The notes beneath the pieces were generated by a model. The model searched no databases. It was not told where the DNA came from and saw nothing but the letters and a program-made list of their open reading frames with translations. A stretch of 64,000 bases of DNA from Enterobacter kobei (GTDB lineage Bacteria > Pseudomonadota > Gammaproteobacteria > Enterobacterales > Enterobacteriaceae). Position numbers and translations under genes: made by a program. Location: NCBI RefSeq assembly GCF_001729765.1, contig NZ_CP017181.1, positions 3,658,001 to 3,722,000 of the forward strand, read 5' to 3'. Below are positions 13,699 through 35,167 of this stretch, piece after piece; position 1 is the first letter of the stretch, and each line of letters starts with the position of its first letter.

Positions 13699-13715
13699 TA
13701 TGCGCGAAGCATATA
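13699..13715. promoter_or_regulatory. TATGC-N5-GCATA dyad before first MarR gene
   Basis: TATGCGCGAAGCATATA contains the dyad TATGC-N5-GCATA ten bases upstream of the MarR start codon at 13726. The same dyad recurs at other stress-gene promoters in this region, so this is a likely autoregulatory operator. Confidence 0.6.
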
Positions 13716-13725
13716 TTCTTGCGGT

Positions 13726-14259
13726 ATGGAGCCTGAGGTCGCCAAGTACCATTTAGGTGCACTCGCGTTGGCCGTTGCAGACAGCATCGCCAGTGTCTCG
13801 GCCTCGTTTTCACCAAGCGGCCCGGGGACCGCCGTGATGGTGTTACTCAGCATGGAGCCCGGACTGCCGATCAGCGTTTTGGCTACCTCGATCGGGCTTT
13901 CTCATGCCGGGACGGTGCGATTGATCGATAGGCTCGAGCGCGAACAGTTGGTGGAACGACGAAGACAAATCACCGACAGGCGGGCGCGCTTCATTCACCT
14001 CACCAATTCGGGGAAGAAGATAACGGACGCCTTGCTCAAGGCACGGGAGCAGGTGATCTCCGAATGTATTTCGCCCCTGTCGCCCAATGACCTCGACATT
14101 CTAGGCATGCTGTCGGAGCGGCTCCTTGTGGCAAACGGCTTCGACAAAGATGGCTCGGTCAGCCTTTGCCATCTGTGCGGCTACAGCAGGATCGCGCCTT
14201 CCCGTGGTAAAGCTAAGCCGGGGCGCTCGCCACGCTGGAACGTCGCATCAGAAGGCTGA
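13726..14259 (+). CDS. MarR-family regulator with C-terminal CxxC motif (1)
   Basis: About 177 residues from ATG 13726. The winged helix-turn-helix is clear (LATSIGLSHAGTVRLIDRLEREQLVERRRQITDRRARFIHLTNSGKK). The C-terminal extension holds CHLCGY, a cysteine pair shared with the second MarR protein at 16942. MarR proteins with such cysteines often sense oxidants or electrophiles; here that is inferred. The start was chosen because the shared dyad operator lies just upstream; an earlier in-frame start would place the operator inside the gene. It precedes the YeeE/YedE gene by 26 bp. Confidence 0.85.
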   Translation: MEPEVAKYHLGALALAVADSIASVSASFSPSGPGTAVMVLLSMEPGLPISVLATSIGLSHAGTVRLIDRLEREQLVERRRQITDRRARFIHLTNSGKKITDALLKAREQVISECISPLSPNDLDILGMLSERLLVANGFDKDGSVSLCHLCGYSRIAPSRGKAKPGRSPRWNVASEG

Positions 14260-14285
14260 CGATATGATCAGGCAGGCTTGAAATA

Positions 14286-15245
14286 ATGGGATCGTTTGCG
14301 CTCGAACTTCTTCTATGCGTACTTGCCTTCGGGTTCGGATATGCGGCGAACCAAGGCGGAACCTGTTTAGTGGTGGCCGCTCATGAGTTACACAGAAGAC
14401 AGCCGCCGAAAATGTTCGTCGGATTTCTCGCAGCGTCGGCAGCGGCAGGCCTGGTTGCGGTCCCGATAGTCTGGACGGGAACACTGGGCGCAACACTCGC
14501 ACCCTCGACCAGCATCAATTTCCTCCTGCTCATCGGCGCCATCGCCTTCGGCCTCGGCGCACTCATTAATGACACATGCCTGCTCGGATCGCTGGCGCGG
14601 CTTGGGGATGGGGAGATGCGACTTCTAGCTCTACCCTTGGGATTAACGATTGGTATCTTGGCTGCCGACCATGGCAGGTTCGGCTACGATTCAACATGGC
14701 CAAGCTTAATCTCCAAACCGAGCGCAACAGGCCTCGTTACTCTCCTAGCCTTCCTAGTTGTGCTCGTGCTGGCACTCGTTTTCGTTTCCACGAAGAGCGT
14801 TCTGCGAACAAAGCCGGGTTGGTCGTTCGGCGCTTCGATGATTGGACTCGGTATCACTGGCGGACTTCTATATGCACTCTCGCCGGCCTGGACCTTCGCA
14901 GACGTGATTCAACGCGCCCTTCCTCTCAGAATGTCCCCGGCCGGCGAGGTCGCGCTCACTGCGGTGATCTCTTCGATCGCAGGCGCCCTAACCGCCTCCT
15001 TTCGCCAAGGCAATCTGCGTCTCCAACTGCCGACAGCCAATGGCATTCTGCGATCTGTCGTCGGCGGCACATTGATGGGTATCGGCATCGCGCTCATACC
15101 CGGCGGGAATGATGGGTTGATCCTCGCAGCGGTTCCGACTCTTTCACCTGGTGGGATAGTCGCCTACCTTCTGATGACGACGACAATCGTCTTCGGATTT
15201 GCAGCGCGTGGTAAGTTATTCCGGCGCTGCCTTTCACGGCCATGA
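14286..15245 (+). CDS. YeeE/YedE-family sulfur transporter homolog
   Basis: 319 residues, with about nine to ten hydrophobic segments. It shows the two-fold repeated pattern of the YeeE/YedE (DUF395) family: FGFGYAANQGGTCLVVAAHEL in the first half with a conserved cysteine, FGLGALINDTCLLGSLARLGDGE in the centre, and GGTLMGIGIALIPGGNDGLIL near the C-terminus. Characterised relatives import thiosulfate or related sulfur species. The second cysteine motif in the C-terminal half is GGNDG rather than a cysteine, so transport chemistry may differ. Probably co-transcribed with the MarR gene upstream. Confidence 0.82.
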   Translation: MGSFALELLLCVLAFGFGYAANQGGTCLVVAAHELHRRQPPKMFVGFLAASAAAGLVAVPIVWTGTLGATLAPSTSINFLLLIGAIAFGLGALINDTCLLGSLARLGDGEMRLLALPLGLTIGILAADHGRFGYDSTWPSLISKPSATGLVTLLAFLVVLVLALVFVSTKSVLRTKPGWSFGASMIGLGITGGLLYALSPAWTFADVIQRALPLRMSPAGEVALTAVISSIAGALTASFRQGNLRLQLPTANGILRSVVGGTLMGIGIALIPGGNDGLILAAVPTLSPGGIVAYLLMTTTIVFGFAARGKLFRRCLSRP

Positions 15246-15283
15246 TAAGGGCAACAGAGGACTTGCCCTCCTGACATGAGCAT

Positions 15284-15694
15284 TTATCCCGACCGGGAAT
15301 ATCGGCTGACTAGCTCGTATGCCTTTGCAGGCCCTTGGACCATGATGACCACTTCAAAGGCCGCCGGCCCCAGAATCCTGTAGGTTGCATGGTAGGTGTC
15401 GTCTCCGCAGGCATAGACGCCACTCGCTTCCAACCCGGTATCCGTCCGCGAGAAACTCAAGCTGAGGAACTGCGTCCCGATATGAGGTCCGTCTGCGAAC
15501 TCGACGACAACACTGTCCTCGCTCAAGCGATAGCGATACTGCCGGCACGCGGAGAATACTCTGCCATCTGCCAGTGAGAGAATGCCGCTCTCTCGATAAG
15601 CGAGCGCGCCTTCGCCGATCGCTGCTACGATTTCGGTGGGCATGGTTATCTCGTCCAGGGCCGCGTCCATCCGTACAGGCTGGACGTTTGCCAA
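15284..15694 (-). CDS. DUF6314-like protein, probably lacking its N-terminus
   Basis: 136 residues from a TTG at 15694. The pattern LAYRESGILSLADGRVFSACRQYRYRL...VVEFADG...YACGDDTYHATYRI...VQGPAKAYELVSRY resembles the body of DUF6314 proteins. These usually begin with a GRWxLxR segment that is missing here. A segment of that kind (NLRGAWMLRRDIEPGGAQLHGDAVFAR) is found on the opposite strand at about 16455-16550. Function of the family is unknown. The gene may have been split by an inversion. Confidence 0.55.
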   Translation of the reverse strand: MANVQPVRMDAALDEITMPTEIVAAIGEGALAYRESGILSLADGRVFSACRQYRYRLSEDSVVVEFADGPHIGTQFLSLSFSRTDTGLEASGVYACGDDTYHATYRILGPAAFEVVIMVQGPAKAYELVSRYSRSG

Positions 15695-15849
15695 CGGGCT
15701 ATAGGCCCACCCGGAGCGCCAGCCCCATCAAGTCAAAATCCCGCAAAGGTCGCGCGTTTGCTGGGTAAAGGCATCGCCGATGAGGATGGCTTCGTGAGGC
15801 AGCGAAGCGCGAGCCAGCCGCTCGACATATCTCGCTTATTAGTATATGG

Positions 15850-15868
15850 TATATGCGTCGCGCATATA
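15850..15868. promoter_or_regulatory. TATATGCG-TCG-CGCATATA palindrome before the DUF417 gene
   Basis: A perfect 8+3+8 inverted repeat, 73 bp before the DUF417 start codon. It contains the shared core TATGC-N5-GCATA and is the most symmetrical example in the region. Confidence 0.65.
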
Positions 15869-15940
15869 CTGCAACGCCTGCCCGAAGCACGTAGACGACG
15901 TTCGTGACGTTCCCACGGGACCACTGTTGAGGAATTTTAG

Positions 15941-16429
15941 ATGAGCATTTTCGACCGTTATGAATTTCTTGTCCCCGAGCACGGTCGGAGGGATCTTGGC
16001 CTGCTTAGATGGGCTCTCGTGATCGTATTTCTGTGGTTCGGCGCGATGAAGTTCACAGCGTACGAGGCCTATGGTATCGCCCCGTTTATCGAACACAGCC
16101 CGATCATGAATTGGCTCGGCATGTTCGGGACGCAGGGGCAAAGCTATTTCATCGGCGTTATCGAGTTATCGACCGGTCTCGTTCTGATCCTTGGTGCATT
16201 TCGTCCACTCTTCTCTGCGCTAGGCGCACTAATGTCAGCAGCGACCTATCTGATCACGCTGACCTTTTTCATCACCACTCCAGGTGTCGCGGAGCAGACT
16301 GCCGGCGGCTTTCCTGCGATTTCGGCTGCACCAGGGCAGTTTCTACTGAAGGACGCAGTTCTGCTAGCGGCGTCCCTCGTGCTGCTGCGTGCTTCGGTCC
16401 GCCACAGAGGGGCGCTTGTGCTCTCGTGA
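15941..16429 (+). CDS. DUF417 (YkgB/RclC-like) membrane protein
   Basis: 162 residues with four hydrophobic segments. The family pattern is FLWFGAMKFTAYEAYGIAPFIEHSPIMNWL, then GVIELSTGLVLILGAF, and a C-terminal QFLLKDAVLLAASLVLL. DUF417 includes RclC of the E. coli reactive-chlorine operon rclABC, an inner-membrane protein needed for hypochlorite survival. Start ATG at 15941 follows GAGGAATTTTAG. A near-perfect palindrome lies upstream. It is the best single pointer to a reactive-chlorine role for the island, though DUF417 proteins occur in other contexts too. Confidence 0.85.
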   Translation: MSIFDRYEFLVPEHGRRDLGLLRWALVIVFLWFGAMKFTAYEAYGIAPFIEHSPIMNWLGMFGTQGQSYFIGVIELSTGLVLILGAFRPLFSALGALMSAATYLITLTFFITTPGVAEQTAGGFPAISAAPGQFLLKDAVLLAASLVLLRASVRHRGALVLS

Positions 16430-16905
16430 CTGTGGTCCTCTCGTGACGGCGGGCGTGCAAATCCTGCAGAACCTCCGCGGGGCATGGATGCTCCGTCGCG
16501 ATATCGAGCCCGGAGGCGCTCAGCTGCATGGCGACGCGGTCTTCGCCCGTTTCGCCGCAATCCCCGACGTCGTGGAGCACGGACTGTTCCTCAATGGGAT
16601 TGATACAATCGTGATCGCGCGCGGTGACACGATGGAAGTGCGACGCCGGGGGCAAGCTAGGTCTCGCTGATCTGCACCTGCGCGGCCTGGATGACAGCGC
16701 TGACGCGGAGTGATTCTCGGGCGCGACCTACGGCGATTCCGAGCGAAAAGGCTTGCCCTATAGCCGCCAGGTATCAACGGTTCCGCGGCCTTAACGAGCC
16801 GGACCCGTTTTTTTCGGCGCGCTCGATCAGTCGAAATCCTCCGAAACCCTTCTAAAACAGGACATTTTCCACAAGCCGCGCGGAGGAAGAGGACCACGGT
16901 ATGGC
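16430..16905 (+). other. Intergenic stretch with a DUF6314 N-terminus-like remnant
   Basis: No complete gene is seen. From about 16446 to 16670 one frame reads GVQILQNLRGAWMLRRDIEPGG and AQLHGDAVFARFAAIPDVV before a stop. Its first half looks like the missing start of the DUF6314-like gene on the other strand at 15284-15694. The rest (16671-16905) shows nothing recognisable apart from the upstream region of the next MarR gene. Confidence 0.4.
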
Positions 16906-16913
16906 TTGCTGTC

Positions 16914-16930
16914 TATGCTCCGCGCACATA
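16914..16930. promoter_or_regulatory. Imperfect TATGC-N5-GCACA dyad before second MarR gene
   Basis: TATGCTCCGCGCACATA lies 11 bases upstream of the chosen start at 16942. The spacing relative to the gene copies that of the first MarR gene (dyad ending 10 bases before its start), which supports both the operator and both start-codon choices. Confidence 0.5.
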
Positions 16931-16941
16931 TAGATGTGGCA

Positions 16942-17481
16942 ATGGATGGACCTCGAGATCGAAACATTTTCGGGGCGTTCGCACTCATGATCAGCGACGA
17001 CATCGTTCGCGCTAGTTCATCGCGGGCGCCGGAAGCTGGACCCGCCGCCTCAGCGCTGGCGTTGCTCGCGCACAAGCCCGGGCTCTCGATCCGTATGCTT
17101 GCGATCGGGGTGGGCCTTTCACATGCTGGAACTGTTCGCCTGGTGGATAGATTGGTAAGCGAGGGATTGATCGAGCGTAGGGAGCATTCGACAGACGGGC
17201 GCGCGCGATCCCTCTATCTTACTCCAACTGGCAAGGTCGCGAGCGACGAGGTCCTGGCCTCGCGCGATCAAGTGATTGCCGAAGGGCTATCGATCCTTAA
17301 TCCAGACGAACTGAAAACCTTATCGGACATCGCTGAACGCGTTCTCCGAAATCGCTTGGAAAACCTCGAGCAGTCATACCGCATCTGCCGCTTGTGCTGC
17401 TACGAGGGCTGCACGAACTGCCCCGTCGATGCCGAATTGCATGAGCGAGGTGTGGACCGCGAGAAGAACGACGACGCGTAG
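16942..17481 (+). CDS. MarR-family regulator with C-terminal cysteine cluster (2)
   Basis: About 179 residues from ATG 16942. The winged helix is nearly the same as in the first MarR gene (IGVGLSHAGTVRLVDRLVSEGLIERREHSTDGRARSLYLTPTGK). The C-terminus carries CRLCCYEGCTNCPVDAEL, five cysteines within 15 residues, which could bind a metal or form disulfides. The shared operator and paralogy suggest both MarR proteins act on overlapping target sites. The family is known to use cysteine oxidation for sensing; whether this one does is not shown by sequence. Confidence 0.85.
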   Translation: MDGPRDRNIFGAFALMISDDIVRASSSRAPEAGPAASALALLAHKPGLSIRMLAIGVGLSHAGTVRLVDRLVSEGLIERREHSTDGRARSLYLTPTGKVASDEVLASRDQVIAEGLSILNPDELKTLSDIAERVLRNRLENLEQSYRICRLCCYEGCTNCPVDAELHERGVDREKNDDA

Positions 17482-17489
17482 GAGACTCG

Positions 17490-17877: not shown

Positions 17878-18903
17878 TCAAGGCAGGGTAACGACGATTT
17901 TCGCTGCGGATACACCCGCCTTCAGGGCTTCCAAGGCAGCCTGGAGCATTTCAAGGCCCTGGCCCACGATCTTCGCCGGAGGGGCGGGGACGAACGTGCG
18001 CGCCGCGAGAGCCTGCGGCAGGAATTCGCGGTAGATCATTGGACCAACCTCGTCATCCTTGAGGCTCGTCCCGGAGATGTGCGTCGCCTCGACTCCAAAT
18101 GAACGCTCGTCGGGCGGGGCCAGCGTCGCTGCCACCCGGCGCGAGCCCTCGCATCTCGCAACTACGGCAAAACAGTCTTTCATGTGACCGGTCGCGTGAA
18201 GCGTTCCAGCGAGACTGCGCCCGCGCATTGCCTCAATCACGTCTTCCACGATGGCTGGACTCGAGTGGTCAAGAACCTCGCTTGCACCCAGCTCCTTCAA
18301 CAGGCCGACGTTGCGCGCCGAAGCGGTGGCGACGCACCTGTAGCCCGACGCCACCGCGAGCTGGATGGCGTTGCAGCCAACGCTCGACGATCCACCCCAG
18401 ACCAGAACGACCTCTGGACGCGCGGTCGGCGAGTGTAACGGTGGCGCGAGAGCCAACTGTGTCCATCCGTAGAGCCCGCTTGCGGCGGTGCCAAGGCCAA
18501 GCGGGAGGACTGCCGCATCAGCGAAGGCAATGTTGTTGGGGATCGGCGCCGCCATGTGGTCCAGCACGATCGTGTGGTGCTGGAACGCACCCTGCGCAGG
18601 TTGATTTACGGTTGTCCCGACCGCCTGTCCGATGACTCGATCGCCGACCTTGAACCGCTCGACCGCGCCACCGACCGCCGCGACCTCACCGGAGACGTCG
18701 CTGCCGAGAATCGCGGGATAGTCGAGCCATGGCAAAAGCGCGACGTCCTGCAGAATCCAGTCGAGTGGGTTGATCGCGATGGCCGCGTTGCGGATCAATA
18801 TCTCGTTCGCCGCCAGATGCGGCAGAGCGGTGACACCGATCCTCAGTGGCTGCCCCGGCGCTTTCTGCCAGGCGGCCTGATTAGTCACGGTTTCGGTCAT
18901 CAT
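17878..18903 (-). CDS. MDR-superfamily quinone reductase-like dehydrogenase (1)
   Basis: 341 residues of the medium-chain dehydrogenase/reductase type. The GroES-like N-terminal domain (INPLDWILQD..., GSDVSGEVAAVGGAVERFKVGDRV) is followed by a Rossmann domain (VVLVWGGSSSVGCNAIQLAVASGYRCVATAS). The cysteine zinc ligands of true alcohol dehydrogenases are not seen, so it fits the zinc-free quinone oxidoreductase/enoyl reductase branch. The ATG at 18903 overlaps the msrA stop (TGATG), so it is the last gene of the osmC fusion-msrA-MDR operon. Likely role: NADPH-dependent reduction of quinones or other electrophiles. Confidence 0.85.
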   Translation of the reverse strand: MMTETVTNQAAWQKAPGQPLRIGVTALPHLAANEILIRNAAIAINPLDWILQDVALLPWLDYPAILGSDVSGEVAAVGGAVERFKVGDRVIGQAVGTTVNQPAQGAFQHHTIVLDHMAAPIPNNIAFADAAVLPLGLGTAASGLYGWTQLALAPPLHSPTARPEVVLVWGGSSSVGCNAIQLAVASGYRCVATASARNVGLLKELGASEVLDHSSPAIVEDVIEAMRGRSLAGTLHATGHMKDCFAVVARCEGSRRVAATLAPPDERSFGVEATHISGTSLKDDEVGPMIYREFLPQALAARTFVPAPPAKIVGQGLEMLQAALEALKAGVSAAKIVVTLP

Positions 18904-19466
18904 CAACTCTTTCTGTCAAGTATTACAGCTGGGCGTTCGTCTGAGCGGTCCAACCGCCAGGTCGGGCGCACGAAGTGGCAGCTATAGCCCCCAGGATAGC
19001 GCACCAGGTATTCTTGGTGCTCTGGCTCCGCCTCCCAAAAGGGTTCTTCTGGGTTGATCTCCGACACGACCGGGCCTGGCCAGCTTCCTGATGCCTCGAT
19101 TTCCGCGATGGTTGTGAGGGCGACTTCCTTCTGCACTTCGGTGGTGTAGAAAATCGCCGATCGATAGCTCGGACCGACATCGCTGCCTTGTTGCTCGTAG
19201 GTCGTGGGGTCATGTATCTGGAAGAAGAGTTCCAAGAGCGAGCGATAGGCGAGAACGGAAGGGTCGAAGGTCACTTCCACTGCTTCCGCATGGCCGTAAT
19301 GTCTCGCGTAGGTCGGATCAGGCATTTCTCCGCCTGTGTAACCGACACGCGTCGAAATGACTCCCCTGGCTCGGCGCAGCAAATCCTCCATGCCCCAGAA
19401 GCAGCCGCCTGCGAGAATTGCTCGCTCTGTCGCGGCCGCCCTATTGCCGGTAGGCGATTGGCTCAC
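18903..19466 (-). CDS. msrA: Peptide-methionine (S)-S-oxide reductase MsrA (1)
   Basis: 187 residues from GTG 19466, with a GGAGGAGGG site upstream. The active-site motif GCFWG is near residue 20. Family blocks follow: [35 protein letters not shown], then FFQIHDPTT and [13 protein letters not shown]-terminal [12 protein letters not shown] supplies a possible resolving cysteine. MsrA reduces methionine-S-sulfoxide in proteins using thioredoxin. It follows the hydrolase-OsmC fusion by 32 bp and overlaps the next gene. A second MsrA of about 55-60% similar pattern is encoded at 22427. Confidence 0.92.
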
Positions 19467-19498
19467 AGTCCGTTCGCCCTCCTCCGTGTGCGCCACGG

Positions 19499-20725
19499 TC
19501 AAGCCAGCCTCGCGGGATCCGCAGCCTGACTGGCGCTCAAGAGCTCGGTCTGCACGTCCGAACCCCGGATGAGACTCAGATCGACGGGACACCGATCAGC
19601 GATCGCGAGGATCCGAGCGCGCTGATCATCACTCAGCGGCCCATCGAGGACAATGGTGCGGGTGAACCGGTCGGGTGGCATCATGTCCGGCACCTTCTCG
19701 TGCTGCACGGTCGTGCTCGCCCGTTCGAGCGGAAAGCCCTTGCGGTTCGCATAGAGACGCATCGTCATCACCGTGCAGGCTGCGAGGCCGGCAGATACGA
19801 GTTCGTAGGGAGATAGTCCGGTCCCGAGGCCACCGACCGATGCTGGCTCGTCGGCGAACAGAGTGTGCTCGCCGCTGCGGACCTTGAGCTGGAACGTCCC
19901 TGCAAGAGTTTCGGTGGAGACGACGCCCTCCGCAACCTCGACCTGCGGAAGATCCGCGCTGAGTGGTGGGAGAAAGCGGCTCGCCCAAACCGCCACCATG
20001 GCCGCGGCGTAGTTCGCGTCCGCGACGTCGGTGAGAAGGTGATCCGCGTTGTCGAGCGAGATGAAGCTTTTAGGGTGCCTGGACGCGACGAAGATGCGCG
20101 ACGCGTGGTCGATGCCGACCACCTGATCCAGCGGAGAGTGCATGACCAGCACCGGCCGTCGCAGGGAGGCAATGGCCTTCTCGACGTCGATCCCCTCAAC
20201 CGCCTCAAGGAACCCTCGGCGAATGAGGAAGGGCCTACCGGCAATCTCCACCGAGGCCTCGCCCTCGCTCGCGATGGTGTCCAGATCATTCGGTCCGAAG
20301 AGGCGCAAGATATGCTGAAGGTCGGCCGGCGCACCAATCGTCGCTACCGCCGCAATATCAGGCATGTCGGCGGCGGCTACGATCGCAGCGGTGCCACCCA
20401 GGCTGTGCCCGACGAGGAGGGACGGTGACATGCCCGCCGCCGCCATCGCATTTGCGGCGGCCCGAAGGTCCTCGACGTCCGACGCGAAGTTCACAGGTTC
20501 TCCCGTCCCACCGCCGATCCCGGTCCCGGCGAAATCGAACCTCAAGACCCCGATGCCCGCACGCGACAGCGCGCGCGAGATGTGAACAGCGGCGCGACTG
20601 TCTTTCCCGCACGTGAAGCAGTGGGCGAAGATCGCCCAGCCCCGCGGCGTCCCTTCCGGCGGTTCGAGGTGCCCGGACAGCGGAGAGCCAGCCCCACTGA
20701 CAAACGTAAATGATCTTCCTGCCAT
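19499..20725 (-). CDS. Alpha/beta hydrolase-OsmC fusion protein
   Basis: About 408 residues with two domains. Residues 1-250 are an alpha/beta hydrolase: [12 protein letters not shown], nucleophile elbow GHSLGG, and the late motif DNADHLL supplying the histidine. Residues about 270-400 are an OsmC/Ohr-like domain with both redox cysteines ([18 protein letters not shown] and DRCPVDLSL). OsmC proteins reduce organic hydroperoxides. The two starts ATGGAC (20731) and ATGGCA (20725) both lie near GGAGG; either is possible. It is the first gene of the operon leading into msrA and faces the LysR gene across two copies of the shared dyad. Confidence 0.88.
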
Positions 20726-20834
20726 GTCCATCAAACCTCCAGCACGCGGCTTGGCGGTTGCGCTCTCAGAACCTTCGACGGAGCTGAGCGGAGCGCACCG
20801 CCAACCGGTAATCGTCATCTCAGGCTATCATTTA

Positions 20835-20889: not shown

Positions 20890-20959
20890 CTTCTGCGACC
20901 TGCTTTCCAAAGGCGGTCTCACGGAAGAGGTATCAGTCAGGCGCGTGGGCCAAAGGACT

Positions 20960-22425: not shown

Positions 22426-22426
22426 C

Positions 22427-27779: not shown

Positions 27780-28279
27780 CGCCGGGCTCGTTCTCGGGCC
27801 TGACTTGAGGGTTGATACTCTGCCGCACTGATGAACTGGTCGAATGCTTCGCACCAGATGACGACCGTGTTGTAGTCACGGACATCGATGCCGGCAGGCA
27901 CCTCGACGATGAAGCCGTTGAACGTCTTCACATCGCCCACGCGGACTGATCTGTCCTTGATTAGGAGAAAGGCCTCCTTCGTGTCGACGAAACGTGGTGC
28001 GAGGTAGAGCTTGTAGTCGGGACCAGGGGCGAGGCGCCCGATATGGGCGATACGGTCGCGCGAGACCCGGATCTCGCCTTCCCCCCAGTGAAGCAGGTCG
28101 CTGCCTTTGAGATCGCGGGCCAGACGCCCTGCGTAGAGCGTCTCGGCTGAGATGGTCCGCAAGGCCGCCGCGTCCGGGGCCTGGGGGGCGGTCAGGATCG
28201 GCAGCGTGTAGACACCGCCCGCGAAGCCCATGGCGAGCATCGCGAGATGGGTGGCAATCAGGATGACCCAGCGCCGCAT
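27767..28279 (-). CDS. DM13-domain membrane-anchored protein
   Basis: 170 residues with an N-terminal signal-anchor helix (RRWVILIATHLAMLAMGFAGGVYTLPIL). A DM13 domain follows: GSDLLHWGEGEIRVSRDRIAHIGRLAPGPDYKLYLAPRF, FNGFIVEVPAGIDVRDYNTVVIWCEAFDQFISAAEY. DM13 domains have a conserved cysteine (here in VIWCEAF) and are proposed to take part in electron transfer or redox reactions outside the cytoplasm. It is 3 bp downstream of the thioredoxin-like gene and overlaps the MFS gene, giving one three-gene operon. Confidence 0.82.
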   Translation of the reverse strand: MRRWVILIATHLAMLAMGFAGGVYTLPILTAPQAPDAAALRTISAETLYAGRLARDLKGSDLLHWGEGEIRVSRDRIAHIGRLAPGPDYKLYLAPRFVDTKEAFLLIKDRSVRVGDVKTFNGFIVEVPAGIDVRDYNTVVIWCEAFDQFISAAEYQPSSQARERARRWIP

Positions 28280-28282
28280 CGG

Positions 28283-28753
28283 TTACACCAGCTCCAGTCC
28301 CTTCACGAGCTGATCGGCGTCGAGATGGAAGTCCGAGAATACGATGCGGCCGCCAGCGTCCATCACGGAGAACCAGGGCGTTCCCCGCGTGCGGTAGTCC
28401 TCCATGAAGGTGGGAAGCGTCGCGCCGGCAGGTGGCTCGTCCTGACCGAACGCGACAGGAAGCGCATACTTGAGCTGGTTCACGCGCAGCTTCTCGAAGG
28501 TGTTCTCATCCGCTCCTTCGAAGACGGTCTGGATCACCGCGAAGCCCACGCCCTTGGCGCTCAATGCACCATGCAACCTTTGTAGCGTCGGAAATCCATG
28601 CAAATGGCAGCCACGGCACCAGTGCTGGAAGGCGAAGAGGACTTTCGGGCCGGTGCCGAGATCCGACAGCTTGAGCGGCGCGATGCTTTCTCCATCCGCG
28701 CCAATCCATCTCTGCACCCGCAGCTCGGGGGCTTGTCGTTCGTCGACGCTCAT
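28283..28753 (-). CDS. Thioredoxin-fold (TlpA/AhpC-TSA-like) redox protein
   Basis: 156 residues from ATG 28753 with GGAGGATCAG upstream. The active-site region FAFQHWCRGCHLHGFPTLQRLHG has a CxxC pair (C-R-G-C). The cis-proline region is GTPWFSVMDAGGRIVFSDFHLD. The fold is that of thioredoxin or TlpA-like proteins, but no signal peptide is present, so it is probably cytosolic. It could reduce disulfides or act with the Msr enzymes. First gene of the minus-strand operon with the DM13 and MFS genes. Confidence 0.82.
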   Translation of the reverse strand: MSVDERQAPELRVQRWIGADGESIAPLKLSDLGTGPKVLFAFQHWCRGCHLHGFPTLQRLHGALSAKGVGFAVIQTVFEGADENTFEKLRVNQLKYALPVAFGQDEPPAGATLPTFMEDYRTRGTPWFSVMDAGGRIVFSDFHLDADQLVKGLELV

Positions 28754-28904: not shown

Positions 28905-29210
28905 TCACCGCCGCCCCTCAATGACAAAGGCGCGATAGCGGGAACCGGCAAAACGGTGCGCAGCGATGGTTTGGTAGGCGGGGCTATGATACCAATCACG
29001 GGCGGCCTGCATCGTCGGGAACCGCAAAATTACGGCCCCTTCGACGGGCGGCCCCTCCAAATGCTCCATCGCGCCATAAGCGGCGAGAAAGGTTACGTCG
29101 TGGCCATCGAACGATGGGCCGACGCCTGCAGAATAGGTTGCGAGTTCTTCCGGATCGGTGGTTTCTTCGCGGGTGAAGACGACGAACGCTTCCATCTTAA
29201 AGTCTTTCAT
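28905..29210 (-). CDS. DUF1330-family protein
   Basis: About 101 residues from ATG 29210 (an alternative start is 29195). The ferredoxin-like dimeric alpha-beta barrel pattern of DUF1330 is seen: AFVVFTREETTDPEELATYSAGVGPSF, GAVILRFPTMQAARDWYHSPAYQTIAAHRFAGSRYRAFVIEG. Members are close to the EthD/ABM barrel proteins and are small; their function is mostly unknown. It lies between the thioredoxin-like operon and the GlcG-like gene on the same strand. Confidence 0.82.
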   Translation of the reverse strand: MKDFKMEAFVVFTREETTDPEELATYSAGVGPSFDGHDVTFLAAYGAMEHLEGPPVEGAVILRFPTMQAARDWYHSPAYQTIAAHRFAGSRYRAFVIEGRR

Positions 29211-29257
29211 AAGGTCGCATCTGCAGGCCACCGCCGCTGGCGATGGCCTTAAAGTCG

Positions 29258-29689
29258 TCAGGCTGGCAGCTCGAACCCGATTTTCGTGAGTGCCTCGACG
29301 CACGCATCCTGATCCTGCTGATAGTTGCCTCCGGAGATGCCGATCCCGCCGATCAACTTCCCGTCTTCCAGGATCGGATAGCCTCCGCCGACAGCGACCA
29401 TCCGGGGGCGATAGGCCAGCGGCGCCACTTTTGGATCGTTCGAAACATAGTCGTTCCAGACATGGGTGGGGTACCCAAACGAGGCGGAACTCCAAGCCTT
29501 GTCGATGGCAACATCGACGGTGAGAAACGGCGCGTCATCAGTGCGCTCGAACGCGCGCAGGTTACCGGTGGCGTCGACGACGGCGACCGCAGCCGGGATG
29601 CCGATTGTACGTGCCGCGGCGATCGCCGCGTCGATGAGGGCGACGGCGGTTTCGCGGTTGATCGAGGCGGTGGCAATGGATTTCGTCAT
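29258..29689 (-). CDS. GlcG/HbpS-family heme-binding-like protein
   Basis: 143 residues from ATG 29689 with an AAGGAAATTTC leader. Family pattern: AVALIDAAIAAARTIGIPAAVAVVDATGNLRAFERTDDAPFLTVDVAIDKAWSS, then VAVGGGYPILEDGKLIGGIGISGGNYQQDQDACVEAL. HbpS of Streptomyces binds haem and senses oxidative stress; GlcG is of unknown role. No export signal is seen. It sits 74 bp after the MDR gene and is probably transcribed from the promoter upstream of that gene. Confidence 0.85.
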   Translation of the reverse strand: MTKSIATASINRETAVALIDAAIAAARTIGIPAAVAVVDATGNLRAFERTDDAPFLTVDVAIDKAWSSASFGYPTHVWNDYVSNDPKVAPLAYRPRMVAVGGGYPILEDGKLIGGIGISGGNYQQDQDACVEALTKIGFELPA

Positions 29690-29762
29690 GAAATTTCCTT
29701 CGCCGTGGCGTAATCCGTCCGGCGTTCTTGAGGTTAGAAAAGACGTTCGGCGGTGGCAGTCA

Positions 29763-30773
29763 TCAGAAGCCTTCGAGGACAATCTTGCCTCTTGCCGCGC
29801 CACTTTCGATCAGTGCGTGCACCGTCTTCAGATTGGCGGCATTAATTGGCGACAATTTTTCGGTTAGCGTCGTGCGAATTTTGCCGTCGTCCACCAGCAC
29901 CGCCAGCGAATTGAGGATCTTGCCCTGCTCATCCATGTCGGGCGTGCCGTAGAGCGACCGTGTGAACATCAGCTCGTGGTGGATCGACACTGCCTTGCGC
30001 TTGAACAGCATGACGTCGAGCGCCTTGGGATCGTCGATGAATCCGAACCGTCCTTGCGGGGCGATCAGTTCGGCGATGTCGGATGCATGCTGCTCGGTAT
30101 GCGTGGTCGAGAACACGAAAGCGGGAGCGCCGATGTTGAGCTCGGCAATCTGTGGCGCGAGCGGCCGAGAGTGGTCGATGACATGATGAGCCCCAAGCCC
30201 TTTAACCCACTCCTGGGTTTCCGGCCGAGAGGCGGTGGAGATGACGATGAGATCCGTGCGCTGTCGAGCGATCTGGATGGCGATCGACCCGACCCCACCC
30301 GCACCACCGATGATGAGGATCGCCGCCGCCCCGGGAACGGGCTTCGTCACGTCCAGGCGATCGAACATGGCTTCCCAGGCCGTCAACGTCGTGAGTGGCA
30401 GCGCCGCCGCTTCCGCCCAGTCGAGCGACGCGGGTTTACGACCGACGATCCGGGCGTCGACGAGATGGAACTCCGCATTGGTGCCAGGCCTTATGAGCGA
30501 TCCGGCATAATAGACCTCGTCGCCTACCGCGAACTGCGTCACGTCGGGGCCGACCTCTTGCACGATCCCGGCCGCATCCCATCCCAGCACTTTCCAATCG
30601 CCATCAGCGGGCGGCGTGCTGCTGCGGATTTTGTAGTCGACCGGGTTGACCGAGACAGCCTTCACCTCAACCAGGATATCGCCTCCTTCAGCGACAGGCC
30701 GAGGCAGATCAATGTCGACCAGAGAGGCGTCCTCGGCGATGGGTCCCGGAACCTTGTAACCAACGGCTTTCAT
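29763..30773 (-). CDS. MDR-superfamily zinc-type alcohol dehydrogenase-like / quinone reductase (2)
   Basis: 336 residues. The N-terminal GroES-like domain (VSVNPVDYKIRSS, KVLGWDAAGIVQEVGPDVTQFAVGDEVYYAG) and the Rossmann loop (ILIIGGAGGVGSIAIQIARQRTDLIVISTAS) are typical of the ZADH/YhdH-like quinone oxidoreductase branch. No structural zinc cysteines are seen. It is likely NADPH-dependent and reduces quinones or reactive carbonyls. The imperfect shared dyad lies at 30877-30891, about 100 bp upstream. It is only distantly like the MDR gene at 17878. Confidence 0.88.
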   Translation of the reverse strand: MKAVGYKVPGPIAEDASLVDIDLPRPVAEGGDILVEVKAVSVNPVDYKIRSSTPPADGDWKVLGWDAAGIVQEVGPDVTQFAVGDEVYYAGSLIRPGTNAEFHLVDARIVGRKPASLDWAEAAALPLTTLTAWEAMFDRLDVTKPVPGAAAILIIGGAGGVGSIAIQIARQRTDLIVISTASRPETQEWVKGLGAHHVIDHSRPLAPQIAELNIGAPAFVFSTTHTEQHASDIAELIAPQGRFGFIDDPKALDVMLFKRKAVSIHHELMFTRSLYGTPDMDEQGKILNSLAVLVDDGKIRTTLTEKLSPINAANLKTVHALIESGAARGKIVLEGF

Positions 30774-31378: not shown

Positions 31379-31984
31379 ATGGTCACCAGAGGTTTCACAG
31401 GCCGCGGTCCAGGCGGCGACCAGTCCGATCGGATACCGCCGGGTCAGCATCTCGTGGAGAATTTCCCTGTTCTGACGGCCGGGCCAACGCCGAGCGTGGA
31501 GCCCTCCGATTGGAAATTCACCGTCAAGATCGGTCCGAAGCCCGTCAAAGTGTGGAACTGGAGCGAGTTCAACGCCCTACCGAAGACCAAGATGACCCGA
31601 GACATTCACTGCGTCACGTCCTGGTCCAAGCTGGATACCGCCTGGGAGGGCGTACTCATCGAAGACATCCTTGCAGATGCAGGGCTCGATCGGCCCACCG
31701 ATTTCGTCTTGGCGCACTGCTACGATAATTACTCGACAAACGTCCCGCTGGCGGATCTGCTCTCCGGGAAAGCGATGGTCGCCCTCAACTATGCGGGCAA
31801 GCCGCTTCCCCGCGATCATGGAGGGCCGGCGCGTCTTCTGGTTCCGCACCTTTACTTCTGGAAGTCCGCCAAATGGGTGAACGCGCTGCAATTCACAACG
31901 CGTGACGAGGCGGGCTTCTGGGAGCTGCGCGGCTATCACATCTATGGCGATCCGTGGCGCGAGCAGCGATACACCAATGACTGA
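31379..31984 (+). CDS. Sulfite oxidase-like molybdopterin oxidoreductase (MsrP/YuiH-type)
   Basis: 201 residues. The molybdopterin-binding fold is seen in TRDIHCVTSWSKLDTAWEGVLIEDIL, with the cysteine that ligates molybdenum, and in LPRDHGGPARLLVPHLYFWKSAKWV. The family includes MsrP, which repairs oxidised methionine in the periplasm. This protein has no Tat signal and is shorter than MsrP, so it should be cytosolic. The start ATG follows AAGGGGG. The next gene, a flavin reductase, overlaps its end, so they are probably a two-component enzyme. Confidence 0.87.
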   Translation: MVTRGFTGRGPGGDQSDRIPPGQHLVENFPVLTAGPTPSVEPSDWKFTVKIGPKPVKVWNWSEFNALPKTKMTRDIHCVTSWSKLDTAWEGVLIEDILADAGLDRPTDFVLAHCYDNYSTNVPLADLLSGKAMVALNYAGKPLPRDHGGPARLLVPHLYFWKSAKWVNALQFTTRDEAGFWELRGYHIYGDPWREQRYTND

Positions 31985-32720
31985 AAACGGCGCGCAAATC
32001 GCGTGGCAGTCATGCGTGATCGACGAAATCGTCCAGCAAACCCCGAGTATCAAGAGCTTCTTCCTTCGGTTGAGCAAACCGTTCGCGCACATCGCAGGGC
32101 AGCACGTCGATGTCCGGCTGACCGCGCCCGGTGGCTACAGTGCGATGCGGAGTTACTCGATTGCGTCTTCGGCAATCTCGTTCCCGACGGTCGAGCTCGC
32201 TATCGAGCGCCTGCCGGATGGCGAAGTTTCGCCGTTCTTCCACGATGTCGCGGCGATCGGAGACGAAATCGAGCTTCGTGGTCCGCTCGGCGGCCATTTC
32301 CTATGGCCTGAACCTGCCATAGACCCAGTGCTGTTGATCGGGGCAGGCTCCGGCCTCGTGCCGTTGATGGCGATGATCCGGCAGCGCCGCGCACTAGCCC
32401 AGGTCGTGCCGACAGCGCTGCTCCTGTCCGCACGAACCGCTGAAGACGTTCTCTTCTCAAAAGAGCTTCATTCCATCGAATGCAGCGATCCGGCATTCGC
32501 CTTGGCGCTGGCAATTACGCGCGAGAACCCGATCCGCGCATCGGACTTTGCGCGACGGATCGACGGCGTGATGGTCCAAGAAGTTCTGGCCCGGCTTCAC
32601 CGAAAGCCCACACAAGTATTCGTTTGCGGGTCCAACGGTTTCGTCAACATCGCGACCGAGGGCGCGCTGCTGGCCGGCCTGGACCCCTCCATTGTCAAAA
32701 CCGAGCGCTACGGCGGCTAG
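31977..32720 (+). CDS. Ferredoxin-NADP reductase-like flavin oxidoreductase
   Basis: 247 residues from ATG 31977, overlapping the molybdoenzyme end by 8 bp. The FAD-binding motif RSYSIAS is near residue 59, and the NAD(P)-binding motif LLIGAGSGLVPLMAMIRQ near residue 120. The C-terminus ends FVCGSNGFVNIATEGALLAGLDPSIVKTERYGG, typical of FNR-type reductases. No iron-sulfur domain is attached. It likely supplies electrons from NAD(P)H to the molybdoenzyme, a soluble stand-in for the membrane haem protein MsrQ. That pairing is inferred from overlap. Confidence 0.87.
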   Translation: MTENGAQIAWQSCVIDEIVQQTPSIKSFFLRLSKPFAHIAGQHVDVRLTAPGGYSAMRSYSIASSAISFPTVELAIERLPDGEVSPFFHDVAAIGDEIELRGPLGGHFLWPEPAIDPVLLIGAGSGLVPLMAMIRQRRALAQVVPTALLLSARTAEDVLFSKELHSIECSDPAFALALAITRENPIRASDFARRIDGVMVQEVLARLHRKPTQVFVCGSNGFVNIATEGALLAGLDPSIVKTERYGG

Positions 32721-32788
32721 CGGCGCAAGCTACTTCGCGTCCCGCCGATCGTGGACGTGCAGCCCACGGATTAATTTTGGAGATCATC

Positions 32789-34054
32789 ATGAGCCGCTTT
32801 GCCGAACCCGTCTTCATTGCCGCTGGCCTTCGGACGCCTTTCGGCCGCGGCGGAGGCGCGTTGGCTGCCTACGATGCCATCTCTCTGTCCGTGCCTGTCG
32901 TGCAGGCGATGGCGGCGCAGGCGGAGCCTGATCTCCTCGTCTGGGGAACCGTGATCCCGAATTTGGGCTGGAGCAATATTGCTCGCGAAACCTGGCTTGA
33001 TGCCAAGCTCAATCCGACTGTTCCGGCGTTCTCCGTCGTCCTGGCATGCTCGACCAGCATGACGGCGACCTTCGCTGCGGCAGGGATGCTGGGCGGAGGA
33101 ACCGACCTCACCATGGTCGGCGGGTCCGAAGTCATGAGCCGGCCGTCAATCGCCCTGACGGCCGATGCATCGAAGCGGCTCACCGACCTCTTTGCGCAGG
33201 ATGCGACCGCCGCGCTTGCCGCCCTCCAGTCTCTGACTCCACGAGACTACGTGCTCCCCACAAAGGGCTGGGCAAACCGGATCACCGGAAGGACGATGGG
33301 TGATCATATGGAGGAGACCGCCAAGGCTTGGCGGGTCTCGCGCGTCGCGCAGGATGATTGGGCGCTCAAGAGCCACCAGCGGGCAGTCGCTGGTTGGGAA
33401 CGTGGCTTCTTCGACGATCTCGTGATTTCGCTGCCTGAGCTGGCGCGCGATGCGAACCCGCGCGCCGATACGTCGCCCGAACGGCTGGCCGCACTCAAGC
33501 CCGCCTTCGATCGCGACAGCGGGAGGGGAACCCTGACCGCCGGCAACAGCTCACCGATTACGGATGGAGCCGCCGGGTGTTGGGTCGCTACCGAAGCCGG
33601 TGTGGCGAGACTCCCGGCGGGCACCCCCTACGCGCGGCTCGTCGACTACGAGATCTCTGCCGTCGATCTCCACACCGAGGGCCTGCTGATGGCGCCCTCC
33701 TATGGCATTCCGCGCCTGCTCGCGCGGCATCAACTCAGCTTCTCCGACATCGCACTCTGGGAAATCCACGAAGCCTTTGCAGCCCAGGTCCTGGCGAACG
33801 TCGCGGCCATCACCGATCGGGAGTGGGTGCGCGCGACAGCCGGTGTCCAGGCGGCTATGGGCGATTTTGACTGGGACCGCGTCAATCCCAATGGAGGCTC
33901 GGTCGCCCTGGGTCATCCGTTCGGCGCTACAGGCGCGCGCGACCTCAGCCAGGCGGTAAAGGAACTTTGGGCCATGCCGCCCGGATCGCGCGCAATCGTC
34001 AGCATCTGCGCCGACGGCGGTCAAGGCACAGTCGCCCTCCTCGAACGCGGCTGA
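32789..34054 (+). CDS. Thiolase (acetyl-CoA acetyltransferase family)
   Basis: 421 residues. Thiolase hallmarks: active-site cysteine in VVLACSTSMTATFAAAGML, then GNSSPITDGAAG, the histidine in WEIHEAFAAQVLAN, GGSVALGHPFGATGAR, and the second cysteine in SICADGGQGTVALLERG. It should claisen-condense or cleave acyl-CoA. The link to oxidative stress is not evident, except that the thiolase is embedded in the same strand run. ATG 32789 follows TTTTGGAGATCATC. Overall length is slightly above the usual 390-400. Confidence 0.88.
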   Translation: MSRFAEPVFIAAGLRTPFGRGGGALAAYDAISLSVPVVQAMAAQAEPDLLVWGTVIPNLGWSNIARETWLDAKLNPTVPAFSVVLACSTSMTATFAAAGMLGGGTDLTMVGGSEVMSRPSIALTADASKRLTDLFAQDATAALAALQSLTPRDYVLPTKGWANRITGRTMGDHMEETAKAWRVSRVAQDDWALKSHQRAVAGWERGFFDDLVISLPELARDANPRADTSPERLAALKPAFDRDSGRGTLTAGNSSPITDGAAGCWVATEAGVARLPAGTPYARLVDYEISAVDLHTEGLLMAPSYGIPRLLARHQLSFSDIALWEIHEAFAAQVLANVAAITDREWVRATAGVQAAMGDFDWDRVNPNGGSVALGHPFGATGARDLSQAVKELWAMPPGSRAIVSICADGGQGTVALLERG

Positions 34055-34106
34055 CGGTAGATCAACGCCATGACAGCGATCCGCTTCCAACTGTCGGAGA
34101 CGCGAT

Positions 34107-34379
34107 ATGACAACTGATGTGCTGCTGTACATCACGAACTGATGCCCGTTCTGCCGCCGGGCGAAGATGCTCCTCGAGGAGAAGGGCGTGCAATGGAAGG
34201 AACTCGATATCGAGGCGGATCCGGTTCACCGGCAGGCCATGACGGAAGCGTCGGGTCGAAACACCGTGCCGCAGATCTTCATCAACGGCACGCATGTCGG
34301 TGGCTCCGACGAGCTTTTCGAGCTCGATGTCAGAGGCGAACTCGACAAACTCCTGGGGCGCACGCCGCCCGCCATCTGA
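34107..34379 (+). pseudogene. Glutaredoxin interrupted by in-frame TGA before CPFC
   Basis: From ATG 34107 the frame reads MTTDVLLYITN, then TGA (34140-34142), then CPFCRRAKMLLEEKGVQWKELDIEADPVHRQAMTEASGRNTVPQIFINGTHVGGSDELFELDVRGELDKLL. This is a complete 90-residue class I glutaredoxin apart from the stop, with the redox pair CPFC, TVP cis-proline and GG(S)D glutathione site intact. Many relatives have tryptophan before CPFC, so TGG to TGA is the simplest change. Translation from a later ATG (34167) would lose the active site. Selenocysteine is unlikely at this position. Confidence 0.72.
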
Positions 34380-34448
34380 GGGGGTGCGGCCTTGGGGCAG
34401 ACAGCCCGCAAGCCCCGTGCCGGTTGATGAATACGAAAGGAGAGTCCG

Positions 34449-34730
34449 TTGGTCTCAGCTATCTGGAATGACGCCACCATCGCCACAAGCAACGAGACGG
34501 TCGTCGTCGAGGGAAACCACTACTTCCCACCGTCGGCAGTCGATTTTGGCCTGCTTGAGATGAGCCCGCACACGTCCGTCTGCCCGATCAAGGGCACCGC
34601 GCGCTACTTCCATGTGCGTGTGGGAGACGCGCTCAACGTGAACGCAGCCTGGACCTATCCAGATCCGACGCCAGGCGCCGAGGGCATCCGGGATCATATC
34701 GCCTTCTGGAAAGGCGTGGAGGTTGCGTAG
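34449..34730 (+). CDS. DUF427-family protein
   Basis: 93 residues from TTG 34449, with AAAGGAGAGTCCG upstream. The family pattern is seen: TIATSNETVVVEGNHYFPPSAVDFGLLEMSPHTSVCPIKGTARYFHV... and AAWTYPDPTPGAEGIRDHIAFWKGVEV. The CPxKG segment with a conserved cysteine is the most typical element. Function of DUF427 is not established. It follows the glutaredoxin pseudogene by 69 bp on the same strand. Confidence 0.83.
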   Translation: MVSAIWNDATIATSNETVVVEGNHYFPPSAVDFGLLEMSPHTSVCPIKGTARYFHVRVGDALNVNAAWTYPDPTPGAEGIRDHIAFWKGVEVA

Positions 34731-34900
34731 CAGGCGGACAGGTGGCGGCCTCAGCGCCATGTGCAAGCGCCCGCGGGACGGCTTTTCCGCCCATCCCAGG
34801 CCGCGTCGGCTACAGGGCTCCGCCCCGGACCTTCTCCGCGGACTGGCGCCGAGGGCCTCGGACCCTTGGGCTTCTGTCGAATCAAGACGACTGGATTGAG

Positions 34901-35167
34901 ATGGAGCATGCCGAGTTCGATGCCGCCTTCGCGCAGCTTCCCGAGGGATACAGCGAAGGCGCCTACGAAGGCCGGCGTTTCGGCGTGACTGTCCGGCGAT
35001 CCGGTGACGGACGTCGCAACAGCCTGTTCGCCAGGGAGTTGGCCGGGACCGACATTGTCAGCTTCAACCTCTATCGCGTTACATCAGATAGAACATTGCT
35101 GAAGCCGTGCGAGATGTCCGCCGAAAAGGTCGTCGCGTTCGTGCTGGATTTCCGACCGGCCCCCTGA
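34901..35167 (+). CDS. Small conserved-looking hypothetical protein
   Basis: 88 residues from ATG 34901 (MEHAEFDAAFAQLPEGYSEGAYEGRRFGVTVRRSGDGRRNSLFARELAGTDIVSFNLYRV...). The family is not recognised with certainty; the closing LKPCEMSAEKVVAFVLDF holds the only cysteine. Soluble, without signal peptide. The codon use and GC content match the stress island, and it is the last gene before the island meets the second transposon copy. Confidence 0.55.
   Translation: MEHAEFDAAFAQLPEGYSEGAYEGRRFGVTVRRSGDGRRNSLFARELAGTDIVSFNLYRVTSDRTLLKPCEMSAEKVVAFVLDFRPAP

What the first reader, a model, noticed from the sequence alone, without database searches (positions are those of the whole stretch)
13699..35167. 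Mobile island with a coherent reactive-chlorine/oxidant defence gene set
Sequence shows two MsrA, one MsrB, a hydrolase-OsmC fusion, a DUF417/RclC-like membrane protein, a YeeE/YedE transporter, a GST, RidA, a CxxC thioredoxin-fold protein, DM13, a GlcG/HbpS-like protein, two MDR reductases and a molybdoenzyme with a flavin reductase, all in one 21-kb GC-rich block. Established: Msr enzymes repair methionine sulfoxide, the main hypochlorite lesion; RclC is in the reactive-chlorine regulon; RidA becomes a chaperone on N-chlorination. Inference: the block is a transferable tolerance module against hypochlorite or related oxidants, now in an enterobacterial host. I know of no name for this exact set.
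Basis: partly seen in the sequence, partly recalled or inferred. Interest (0 to 1): 0.78.

Follow-up and report, generated by a model that had tools for sequence, protein, structure and literature searches.

The report
Mobile oxidant-defence regulon on plasmids
This is a travelling cluster of bacterial genes that looks built to repair and resist oxidant damage, probably of the bleach (hypochlorite) type; it is shared almost unchanged among plasmids of gut and water bacteria and is partly governed by a matching DNA switch sequence of its own.

Summary
The gene list is real and the block is one mobile unit: window 9733-38192 is 99.95% identical to Aeromonas plasmid pKAM339_1; 409 of 72,556 plasmid records hold some match, 7 cover at least 80%. 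Diverged, reshuffled versions lie in Hyphomicrobium, Sphingomonas, Sphingopyxis and others, with dN/dS 0.03-0.37. The oxidant link is supported: near the RclC-like DUF417 gene stand Msr genes, or an RclR-like regulator plus an AhpD-like protein, in 30 of 41 locus clusters against 0 of 38 control loci. New here: two MarR repressors (tail CRLCC-X3-C-X2-CP in MarR2) and a palindrome, TATATGCGNNNCGCATATA, at the promoters of both MarR genes, DUF417 and OsmC; the only three sites with at most 2 mismatches in the 4.93-Mb genome are in the block. Corrections: the RidA-family gene is YjgH-like; RclC, YeeE and molybdoenzyme matches fall far below NCBI cut-offs; the glutaredoxin is broken, DUF6314 truncated. 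The msrB-msrA-yfcG-corA part is already in print as an 'anti-oxidative system'. Chlorine specificity remains inference.

The parts
3971..4948 (-). RclR-like AraC/Cupin_6 regulator, left of the block and also acquired
   Evidence: NCBIfam RclR is its best model, 138 bits (cut-off 400); 29% to E. coli RclR with Cys at the columns of C21 and C89; segment absent from 29 other genomes of the genus apart from two short stray matches
5067..5603 (+). AhpD-like (CMD) protein, CxxC, divergent from the RclR-like gene
   Evidence: Pfam CMD, TIGR01926 below cut-off, VSGCDYCLAA motif
5858..9477 (+). left Tn3-family (ISPa38) transposase remnant plus IS110 element
9794..13469 (.). conjugation fragment (VirB8, TrbG, TrbI) and a LysR gene with a 1-bp gap relative to pKAM339_1
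13697..13715 (.). operator, 2 mismatches, just upstream of a MarR1 ATG at 13726
13726..14259 (+). MarR1 repressor, short C-terminal CxLC
   Evidence: start codon proposed from the operator position
14286..15245 (+). YeeE/YedE-family (Sulf_transp) membrane protein
   Evidence: 32 bits against the TsuA cut-off of 400
15284..15670 (-). DUF6314, N-terminus cut off by an inversion
   Evidence: profile positions 34-131 of 131
15613..16557 (.). 945-bp segment holding DUF417, inverted relative to alphaproteobacterial loci L101-L103
15850..15868 (.). operator, perfect match, upstream of DUF417
15941..16429 (+). DUF417 inner-membrane protein, RclC/RcrB relative, no cysteine
16912..16930 (.). operator, 3 mismatches, just upstream of a MarR2 ATG at 16942
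16942..17481 (+). MarR2 repressor with tail CRLCC-X3-C-X2-CP
   Evidence: start codon proposed from the operator position and homologues
17878..18903 (-). zinc-type MDR reductase 1
18903..19592 (-). MsrA1 open frame (start uncertain; GCFWG present in this frame)
19499..20731 (-). alpha/beta hydrolase-OsmC fusion, OsmC-domain Cys 319 and 381
20833..20891 (.). two operators 40 bp apart between OsmC fusion and LysR1
20960..21835 (+). LysR1 regulator
21869..21888 (.). second conserved palindrome CTATACGC-N3-GCGTATTGG upstream of MsrB
21982..22966 (+). MsrB then MsrA2
23099..23803 (+). GST of the YfcG/YghU kind (below both cut-offs)
23800..24768 (+). CorA
24860..25432 (+). hypA, no known family; by its place after corA the orf8 of IncP-6 plasmids (inferred)
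25520..25969 (+). hypB, possibly GreA/Gfh1-like transcription factor
   Evidence: GreA_GreB below threshold in 18 of 24 members; low-confidence fold model, best matches GreA and Gfh1
26076..26477 (+). Rid-family protein of YjgH type
26508..28753 (-). MFS transporter, DM13 protein, CxxC protein hypC
28905..30773 (-). DUF1330, HbpS-like protein, MDR reductase 2
31379..34054 (+). sulfite-oxidase-like molybdoenzyme, flavin reductase, thiolase
34107..34379 (+). glutaredoxin with an in-frame stop before CPFC (broken)
34449..35167 (+). DUF427 protein and hypD
35384..39263 (+). right Tn3-family (ISPa38) transposase remnant plus IS110 element

Best explanation
A mobile oxidant-defence regulon. Two MarR repressors bind a shared palindrome at the promoters of their own genes, of DUF417 and of the OsmC-MsrA1-MDR operon. 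Thiol-reactive oxidants (best guess: HOCl, chloramines or HOSCN) modify the MarR cysteines, the repressors leave, and the cell makes a DUF417 membrane protein of the RclC/RcrB family, an OsmC peroxidase-type fusion, methionine sulfoxide reductases and a glutathione-dependent disulfide reductase. A LysR protein probably controls msrB-msrA-GST-CorA through a second palindrome. Shown: genes, synteny, mobility, operator positions, cysteine conservation, purifying selection. Inferred: binding, repression, cysteine sensing, the inducing oxidant, the LysR role, protection.
For: Neighbours of DUF417: Msr (30% identity or more), or RclR-like AraC plus AhpD-like protein (25% or more each), in 30 of 41 locus clusters, 0 of 38 control loci, Fisher p 6e-13. 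Of the 80 loci, 21 have the RclR-like AraC, all in the lower half of the list (mostly Burkholderia, Cupriavidus, Paraburkholderia, Caballeronia); 12 of these also have an AhpD-like protein and a GST 60-64% identical to the block's; L136 and L150, which are one cluster, add an OsmC fusion at 57%. RclR C89 aligned in 25 of 25 and C21 in 23 of 25 AraC proteins (window, L012 and 23 from loci; related sequences, not independent). DUF417 proteins: RclC is needed for HOSCN resistance (PMC12096828 passages), RcrB for HOCl resistance (PMC9600549 passages) in E. coli. Pseudomonas RclR and AhpD-like RclX are needed against HOCl and HOSCN (PMC7950407 passages). Operator: 5 sites with at most 3 mismatches in the window, expected 0.13, 0 of 100 shuffles; all three sites with at most 2 mismatches in 4,927,478 bases lie in the block; 30 sites in 8 MarR-bearing cluster representatives (161 kb), 7 in 33 without (630 kb), 2 in 38 controls (743 kb). 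Unused for finding the motif: cluster L110/L112/L113, two sites per locus, perfect and between MarR2 and DUF417 in L112; the L124/L129-L134/L138 cluster, one perfect site per locus before a distant MarR. Five tail cysteines of MarR2 invariant in 30 of 30 aligned (window plus 29 picked from 120 listed of 259 found). dN/dS 0.03-0.37 where it could be measured.
Against: No expression, binding or survival data. The motif was found in these loci, and 7 of the 8 MarR-bearing clusters hold a locus used to find it, so those counts are partly circular; at 3 mismatches the genome-wide total (9) is below the backward control pattern (12). The operator is not seen upstream of msrB or in the 22-31 kb part (the 30877 site is weak), so shared control is indicated for the left third only. 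11 of 41 clusters show neither Msr nor RclR-like plus AhpD-like genes (one, L107, is cut by its contig end). Controls were not matched by taxon and 20 positions were hand-picked; one control has an RclR-like AraC hit. RclA and RclB: in the 182-kb stretch searched, two 31% RclA matches outside the window and no RclB match. DUF417, RclR-like, YeeE, GST, SUOX and Rid proteins are below the NCBI cut-offs. CorA, MFS, thiolase, DM13 and HbpS have no chlorine role that I know of.
Confidence: 0.62

Rival explanations
1. A general oxidant or electrophile response (organic hydroperoxide, quinone, aldehyde) with no special tie to chlorine: OsmC, GST and MDR reductases are the core and Msr enzymes mend collateral damage.
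For: OsmC domain, two MDR reductases, GST and a MarR repressor fit OhrR-type systems (recalled biology).
Against: MarR1/2 score 32 and 23 bits against the OhrR cut-off of 200. DUF417, RclR-like and AhpD-like genes recur together, and in print RcrB protects from HOCl while loss of its repressor RcrR made no difference to H2O2 growth (PMC9600549 passages).
Confidence: 0.2
2. A metal-responsive or metal-tolerance island: the MarR cysteine tail binds a metal and the module protects from metal-driven oxidation.
For: The five-cysteine tail could bind zinc, copper or an Fe-S cluster (inference); CorA is in the block; a cation-efflux gene lies just right of it (40021-40938).
Against: The cation-efflux gene lies outside the flanking transposase copy; Pfam shows no efflux ATPase or metallochaperone in the block. 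Conservation of the efflux gene with the block was not tested.
Confidence: 0.1
3. A fragment of a degradation pathway for sulfur or aromatic compounds (SUOX, flavin reductase, thiolase, MDR, YeeE).
For: SUOX, flavin reductase and thiolase stay together in Sphingomonadales loci L124 and L129-L133, which form one cluster.
Against: Pfam shows no oxygenase, CoA ligase or other pathway enzyme in the block; these genes are only the right 4 kb, and the 17.7-kb match of many listed plasmids ends before them.
Confidence: 0.06
4. Passenger DNA spread by resistance plasmids with no selected function in its present hosts.
For: Glutaredoxin, DUF6314 and one LysR gene are damaged in the window; the block or parts of it lie near tet(A) and aadA2 or sul1 and blaAFM-1.
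Against: Most genes have open frames and were under purifying selection in diverged lineages; 146 of 146 plasmid records keep the DUF417 junction at 99% or more, though recent spread alone could explain that.
Confidence: 0.1

Closest known systems
msrB-msrA-yfcG-corA-orf8 (orfX) cluster of IncP-6 plasmids, called anti-oxidative system
   Same: Same genes and order; the 3.6-kb copy in L014 is 99% identical. In print in PMC4785139, PMC7096625, PMC8421773 and, next to blaAFM, PMC9984417 (passages read).
   Different: Lacks DUF417, OsmC, the MarR pair, the operators and the right half; the passages read report no function test.
pFBAOT6 28-kb insert in Tn1721 (IncU plasmid, Aeromonas)
   Same: Near-identical block, 99.9% over 81% of the query; mobile history described in PMC5756416 (passages).
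   Different: Treated as mobile DNA; the passages read assign the shared block no oxidant function; lacks the SUOX-thiolase end.
E. coli RclR-RclABC
   Same: DUF417 protein related to RclC (32%); an RclR-like AraC with both cysteines nearby.
   Different: No RclA or RclB in the 182 kb searched; the block's DUF417 has a MarR-type palindrome upstream.
E. coli RcrR-RcrB (TetR repressor and DUF417)
   Same: A repressor controlling a DUF417 membrane protein (PMC9600549 passages); a TetR-DUF417-msrB-msrA set sits on Serratia plasmid pQC07_1.
   Different: The block has MarR, not TetR, and adds repair genes; RcrB itself was not compared by sequence.
Pseudomonas RclR-RclX
   Same: AraC regulator beside an AhpD-like CxxC protein, as in window 3971-5603 (PMC7950407 passages).
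   Different: RclX itself was not compared by sequence here; the pair lies outside the flanking transposase copy.

Membership tests
RclR-RclABC regulon | RclC above NCBIfam NF040476 cut-off | tested here: not met
   89 bits, cut-off 275
RclR-RclABC regulon | RclR above NF040475 cut-off | tested here: not met
   138 bits, cut-off 400; RclR C21 and C89 columns are Cys
RclR-RclABC regulon | RclA and RclB genes alongside | tested here: not met
   in 182 kb: two 31% RclA matches outside the window, no RclB match
RcrARB | TetR repressor next to DUF417 | tested here: not met
   no TetR among the block proteins scanned
[quoted passage not shown]
   L014 match 21966-25606 at 99%; proteins 95-100%
Canonical RidA | Rid family model TIGR00004 above cut-off | tested here: not met
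   35 bits, cut-off 106; best solved relative YjgH
MsrP methionine sulfoxide reductase | NF003767 above cut-off | tested here: not met
   36 bits, cut-off 207
YeeE/TsuA thiosulfate transporter | TsuA model above cut-off | tested here: not met
   32 bits, cut-off 400
OxyR | LysR1 above OxyR model cut-off | tested here: not met
   71 bits, cut-off 329
OhrR | MarR1/2 above OhrR cut-off | tested here: not met
   32 and 23 bits, cut-off 200
Oxidant-defence island | conserved co-occurrence of oxidant genes in separate loci | tested here: met
   30 of 41 clusters against 0 of 38 controls
Oxidant-defence island | induction and protection by hypochlorite | not testable with these tools
   needs bench work

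The most novel reading that the evidence does not exclude
MarR1/MarR2 found a new class of thiol-oxidant sensors (MarR fold with an added CRLCC-X3-C-X2-CP tail) that read TATATGCGNNNCGCATATA, and their reactive-chlorine regulon, at home in alphaproteobacteria such as Hyphomicrobium and sphingomonads, has moved into Enterobacterales plasmids, where chlorination may select it together with resistance genes. DUF417 is its constant member while the regulator is swapped (MarR pair, RclR-like AraC or TetR).
Probability: 0.35. Interest if true: 0.82.

Novelty: new variant of a known kind. Interest (0 to 1): 0.64.

Why it matters
Pieces of this block appear as 'hypothetical' or 'backbone' genes on plasmids that also carry drug resistance (seen and papers). 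If the block protects from chlorine-type oxidants, water and hospital disinfection could co-select such plasmids. The shared operator and the cysteine-tailed repressors give a direct, testable handle, and the recurring partnership of DUF417 with Msr, AhpD-like and RclR-like genes bears on the open question of what RclC/RcrB proteins do (mechanism stated as unknown in PMC12096828, passages).

Tried and rejected
Phase-variable DUF417 switch: an inverted segment (15613-16557, 6-bp inverted repeats) first looked like a switch, but 146 of 146 plasmid records with the junction have one orientation and 0 of 146 the other, and the inversion cuts DUF6314 in two, so it reads as a single past event.

OsmC fusion as anchor: relatives at 44-49% in 18 loci had no Msr neighbour; three had a DUF6314 match at 31-32% and one a SUOX match at 47%. 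That family by itself is not diagnostic; these loci became controls.

Island borders and an empty site: not found. The left flanks of four related genomes did not match the 3560-3716 kb stretch, so the left end of the larger island is unknown.

hypA fold: model too weak (mean pLDDT 65), no credible match. hypB model is weak too (54); the GreA/Gfh1 reading rests on weak but agreeing hints, while the profile search of solved structures found no GreA.

OxyR, OhrR, canonical RidA, MsrP and TsuA identities: rejected on scores.

Rows without weight: the 'Grx' query in my tblastn lists was a wrong-frame ORF and was not counted. The MsrA1 query in the scripts began after the active site (database start). 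In one search the MsrA1 cells for L115, L012 and L124 compare the MsrA2-type paralogue. Generic 'RclA' matches of 20-35% were not counted. output was cut in the middle. In one search MarR2 was taken from 16945, one codon after its ATG.


Full report
What is there. The window is bases 3658001-3722000 of contig 1 of a 4.93-Mb genome.

Mobility. A 28,461-bp alignment to Aeromonas caviae pKAM339_1 covers window 9733-38192 at 99.95%; both sides carry a Tn3-family (ISPa38) transposase copy, and in the window each also has an IS110 gene. Of 72,556 plasmid records 409 hold some match, from 90 bp up and some only to distant msrA or DUF417 genes; 7 have one place covering at least 80% of the query, and 199 of the 409 are predicted conjugative. 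In E. coli 17 of 5,426 genomes match, all 21 places on plasmids. Many listed records share the same 17.7 kb (13600-31255); of the 30 listed only pKAM339_1 reaches the right end at 35.2 kb, and in the 60 spread rows also AP022242, with diverged SUOX-reductase copies in a further group. TnsA-, TniB/TnsC- and TniQ/TnsD-like genes of a Tn7-like element lie to the right; their relation to the block was not worked out. The RclR-like and AhpD-like pair (3971-5603) is also acquired: 29 other genomes of the genus lack the segment apart from two short stray matches, and it is 100% identical on Serratia plasmids, one typed IncHI2A.

Other versions. A DUF417 alignment against genome contigs gave 519 relatives, of which the best 80 loci were kept. 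Fourteen form one cluster of near-identical copies (Zoogloea, Thauera, Brachymonas, Pseudochrobactrum, Serratia, Mixta and others; L096 is mosaic and L102 short). Others are diverged and reshuffled, with recurring sub-operons: MarR2-DUF417; OsmC-MsrA1; LysR1-MsrB-MsrA2-GST-CorA-hypA-hypB; ADH2-HbpS-DUF1330-hypC; SUOX-FNR-thiolase. Pseudomonas and Acinetobacter plasmids carry a further arrangement of msrB to hypD genes at 80-95% nucleotide identity; the Pseudomonas one has a DUF417 of another type (45% to the block's) beside an RclR-like AraC. After merging near-identical loci (3 kb or more at 90%), 41 clusters remain: Msr nearby in 13, GST at 50% or more in 16, RclR-like AraC in 17, AhpD-like in 20; Msr, or RclR-like plus AhpD-like, in 30 of 41. 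Among 38 control loci (18 OsmC-anchored, 20 hand-picked positions) these figures are 0, 0, 1, 0 and 0.

Regulation. Aligning upstream regions of diverged loci showed a palindrome, TATATGCGNNNCGCATATA. The window has five sites with at most 3 mismatches against 0.13 expected, all inside the block: just before MarR1, DUF417 and MarR2, and two between OsmC and LysR1. In the whole genome the only three sites with at most 2 mismatches are block sites; at 3 mismatches 5 of 9 are in the block, while the backward control pattern gives 12 genome-wide. Clusters with a MarR at 60% or more have 30 sites in 161 kb (8 representatives), clusters without have 7 in 630 kb (33), controls 2 in 743 kb (38 loci). 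Seven of those 8 clusters include a locus used to find the motif. The exception, L110/L112/L113, has two sites per locus; those listed (L112) are perfect and lie between MarR2 and DUF417. Of the 15 sites in the 45 loci without a close MarR, 11 lie before a distant MarR (32-37%), 2 before LysR1 and 2 before DUF417 in L107, whose left side is cut off. L012 and L194, where an AraC or a TetR sits by DUF417, and L013-L015 have no site. In the sequence the DUF417 site overlaps a TATACT hexamer, as expected of a repressor site (inference). MarR2 relatives keep five tail cysteines in 30 of 30 aligned (window plus 29 picked from 120 listed of 259); MarR1 keeps two.

Selection and decay. dN/dS is 0.03-0.37 in the cells that could be computed, against up to nine diverged loci for 24 genes; ADH1 and MFS gave no usable pair, some cells were saturated, and three MsrA1 cells compare a paralogue. 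Three genes are damaged in the window: glutaredoxin (in-frame stop), DUF6314 (N-terminus cut off by the inversion) and the left LysR (1-bp gap relative to pKAM339_1).

Function. E. coli RclC (for HOSCN) and its homologue RcrB (for HOCl), both DUF417, are needed for resistance, by a mechanism called unknown (PMC12096828, PMC9600549; passages read). Pseudomonas RclR and RclX, an AhpD-like protein, act against HOCl and HOSCN (PMC7950407; passages). The block's DUF417 is 32% identical to RclC, has no cysteine and is the only relative that the RclC model found in this genome. I therefore read the block as a MarR-controlled oxidant regulon with reactive chlorine as the likeliest natural trigger. Binding, repression, sensing and protection are inferred, not shown.

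The Rid protein is YjgH-like, so the RidA chaperone argument does not carry over. SUOX is not MsrP and YeeE is far from the thiosulfate-transporter cut-off. The name 'anti-oxidative system' exists for the msrB-msrA-yfcG-corA-orfX part (PMC8421773, passage). My ten paper searches (listings, with passages of selected papers) found no description of the whole set as an oxidant module nor of the operator; most subscription papers are not in that library, and the operator letters themselves were not a search term.

Noticed in passing
window 15613-16557; L101-L103: The DUF417 segment is inverted between 6-bp inverted repeats relative to alphaproteobacterial copies; all 146 plasmid records with this junction share one orientation, so plasmid copies probably descend from one event.
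   Followed up: yes
window 18903-19592: Database annotation starts MsrA1 (WP_045269765) after its GCFWG active site; the open frame continues upstream and includes it.
   Followed up: partly
L194 3773-6520: Serratia plasmid pQC07_1 carries Tn3-IS110-TetR-DUF417-msrB-msrA about 17 kb from an RclR-like/AhpD pair: a third regulator type with DUF417.
   Followed up: partly
window 47030-57747: Tn7-like TnsA, TniB/TnsC and TniQ/TnsD genes with unassigned frames in a GC-poor stretch, next to P2-type phage CI, CII-like and integrase genes (55186-57747) near the host border.
   Followed up: no
window 41485-44231: Group II intron reverse transcriptase beside integrase-core and AAA fragments.
   Followed up: no
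window 25520-25969: hypB may be a GreA/Gfh1-type RNA polymerase factor; why an oxidant island would carry one is unexplained.
   Followed up: partly
window 21869-21888: A second conserved palindrome upstream of msrB, ATAC-N7-GTAT, may be the LysR1 box.
   Followed up: partly
G000 C1 3639140-3648809: Two RclA-like flavoproteins (31%) in a GC-rich stretch left of the window, perhaps mercuric reductases (guess).
   Followed up: no
L092: A near-identical copy sits on a contig binned as an Acidobacteriota MAG; mis-binning is possible.
   Followed up: no
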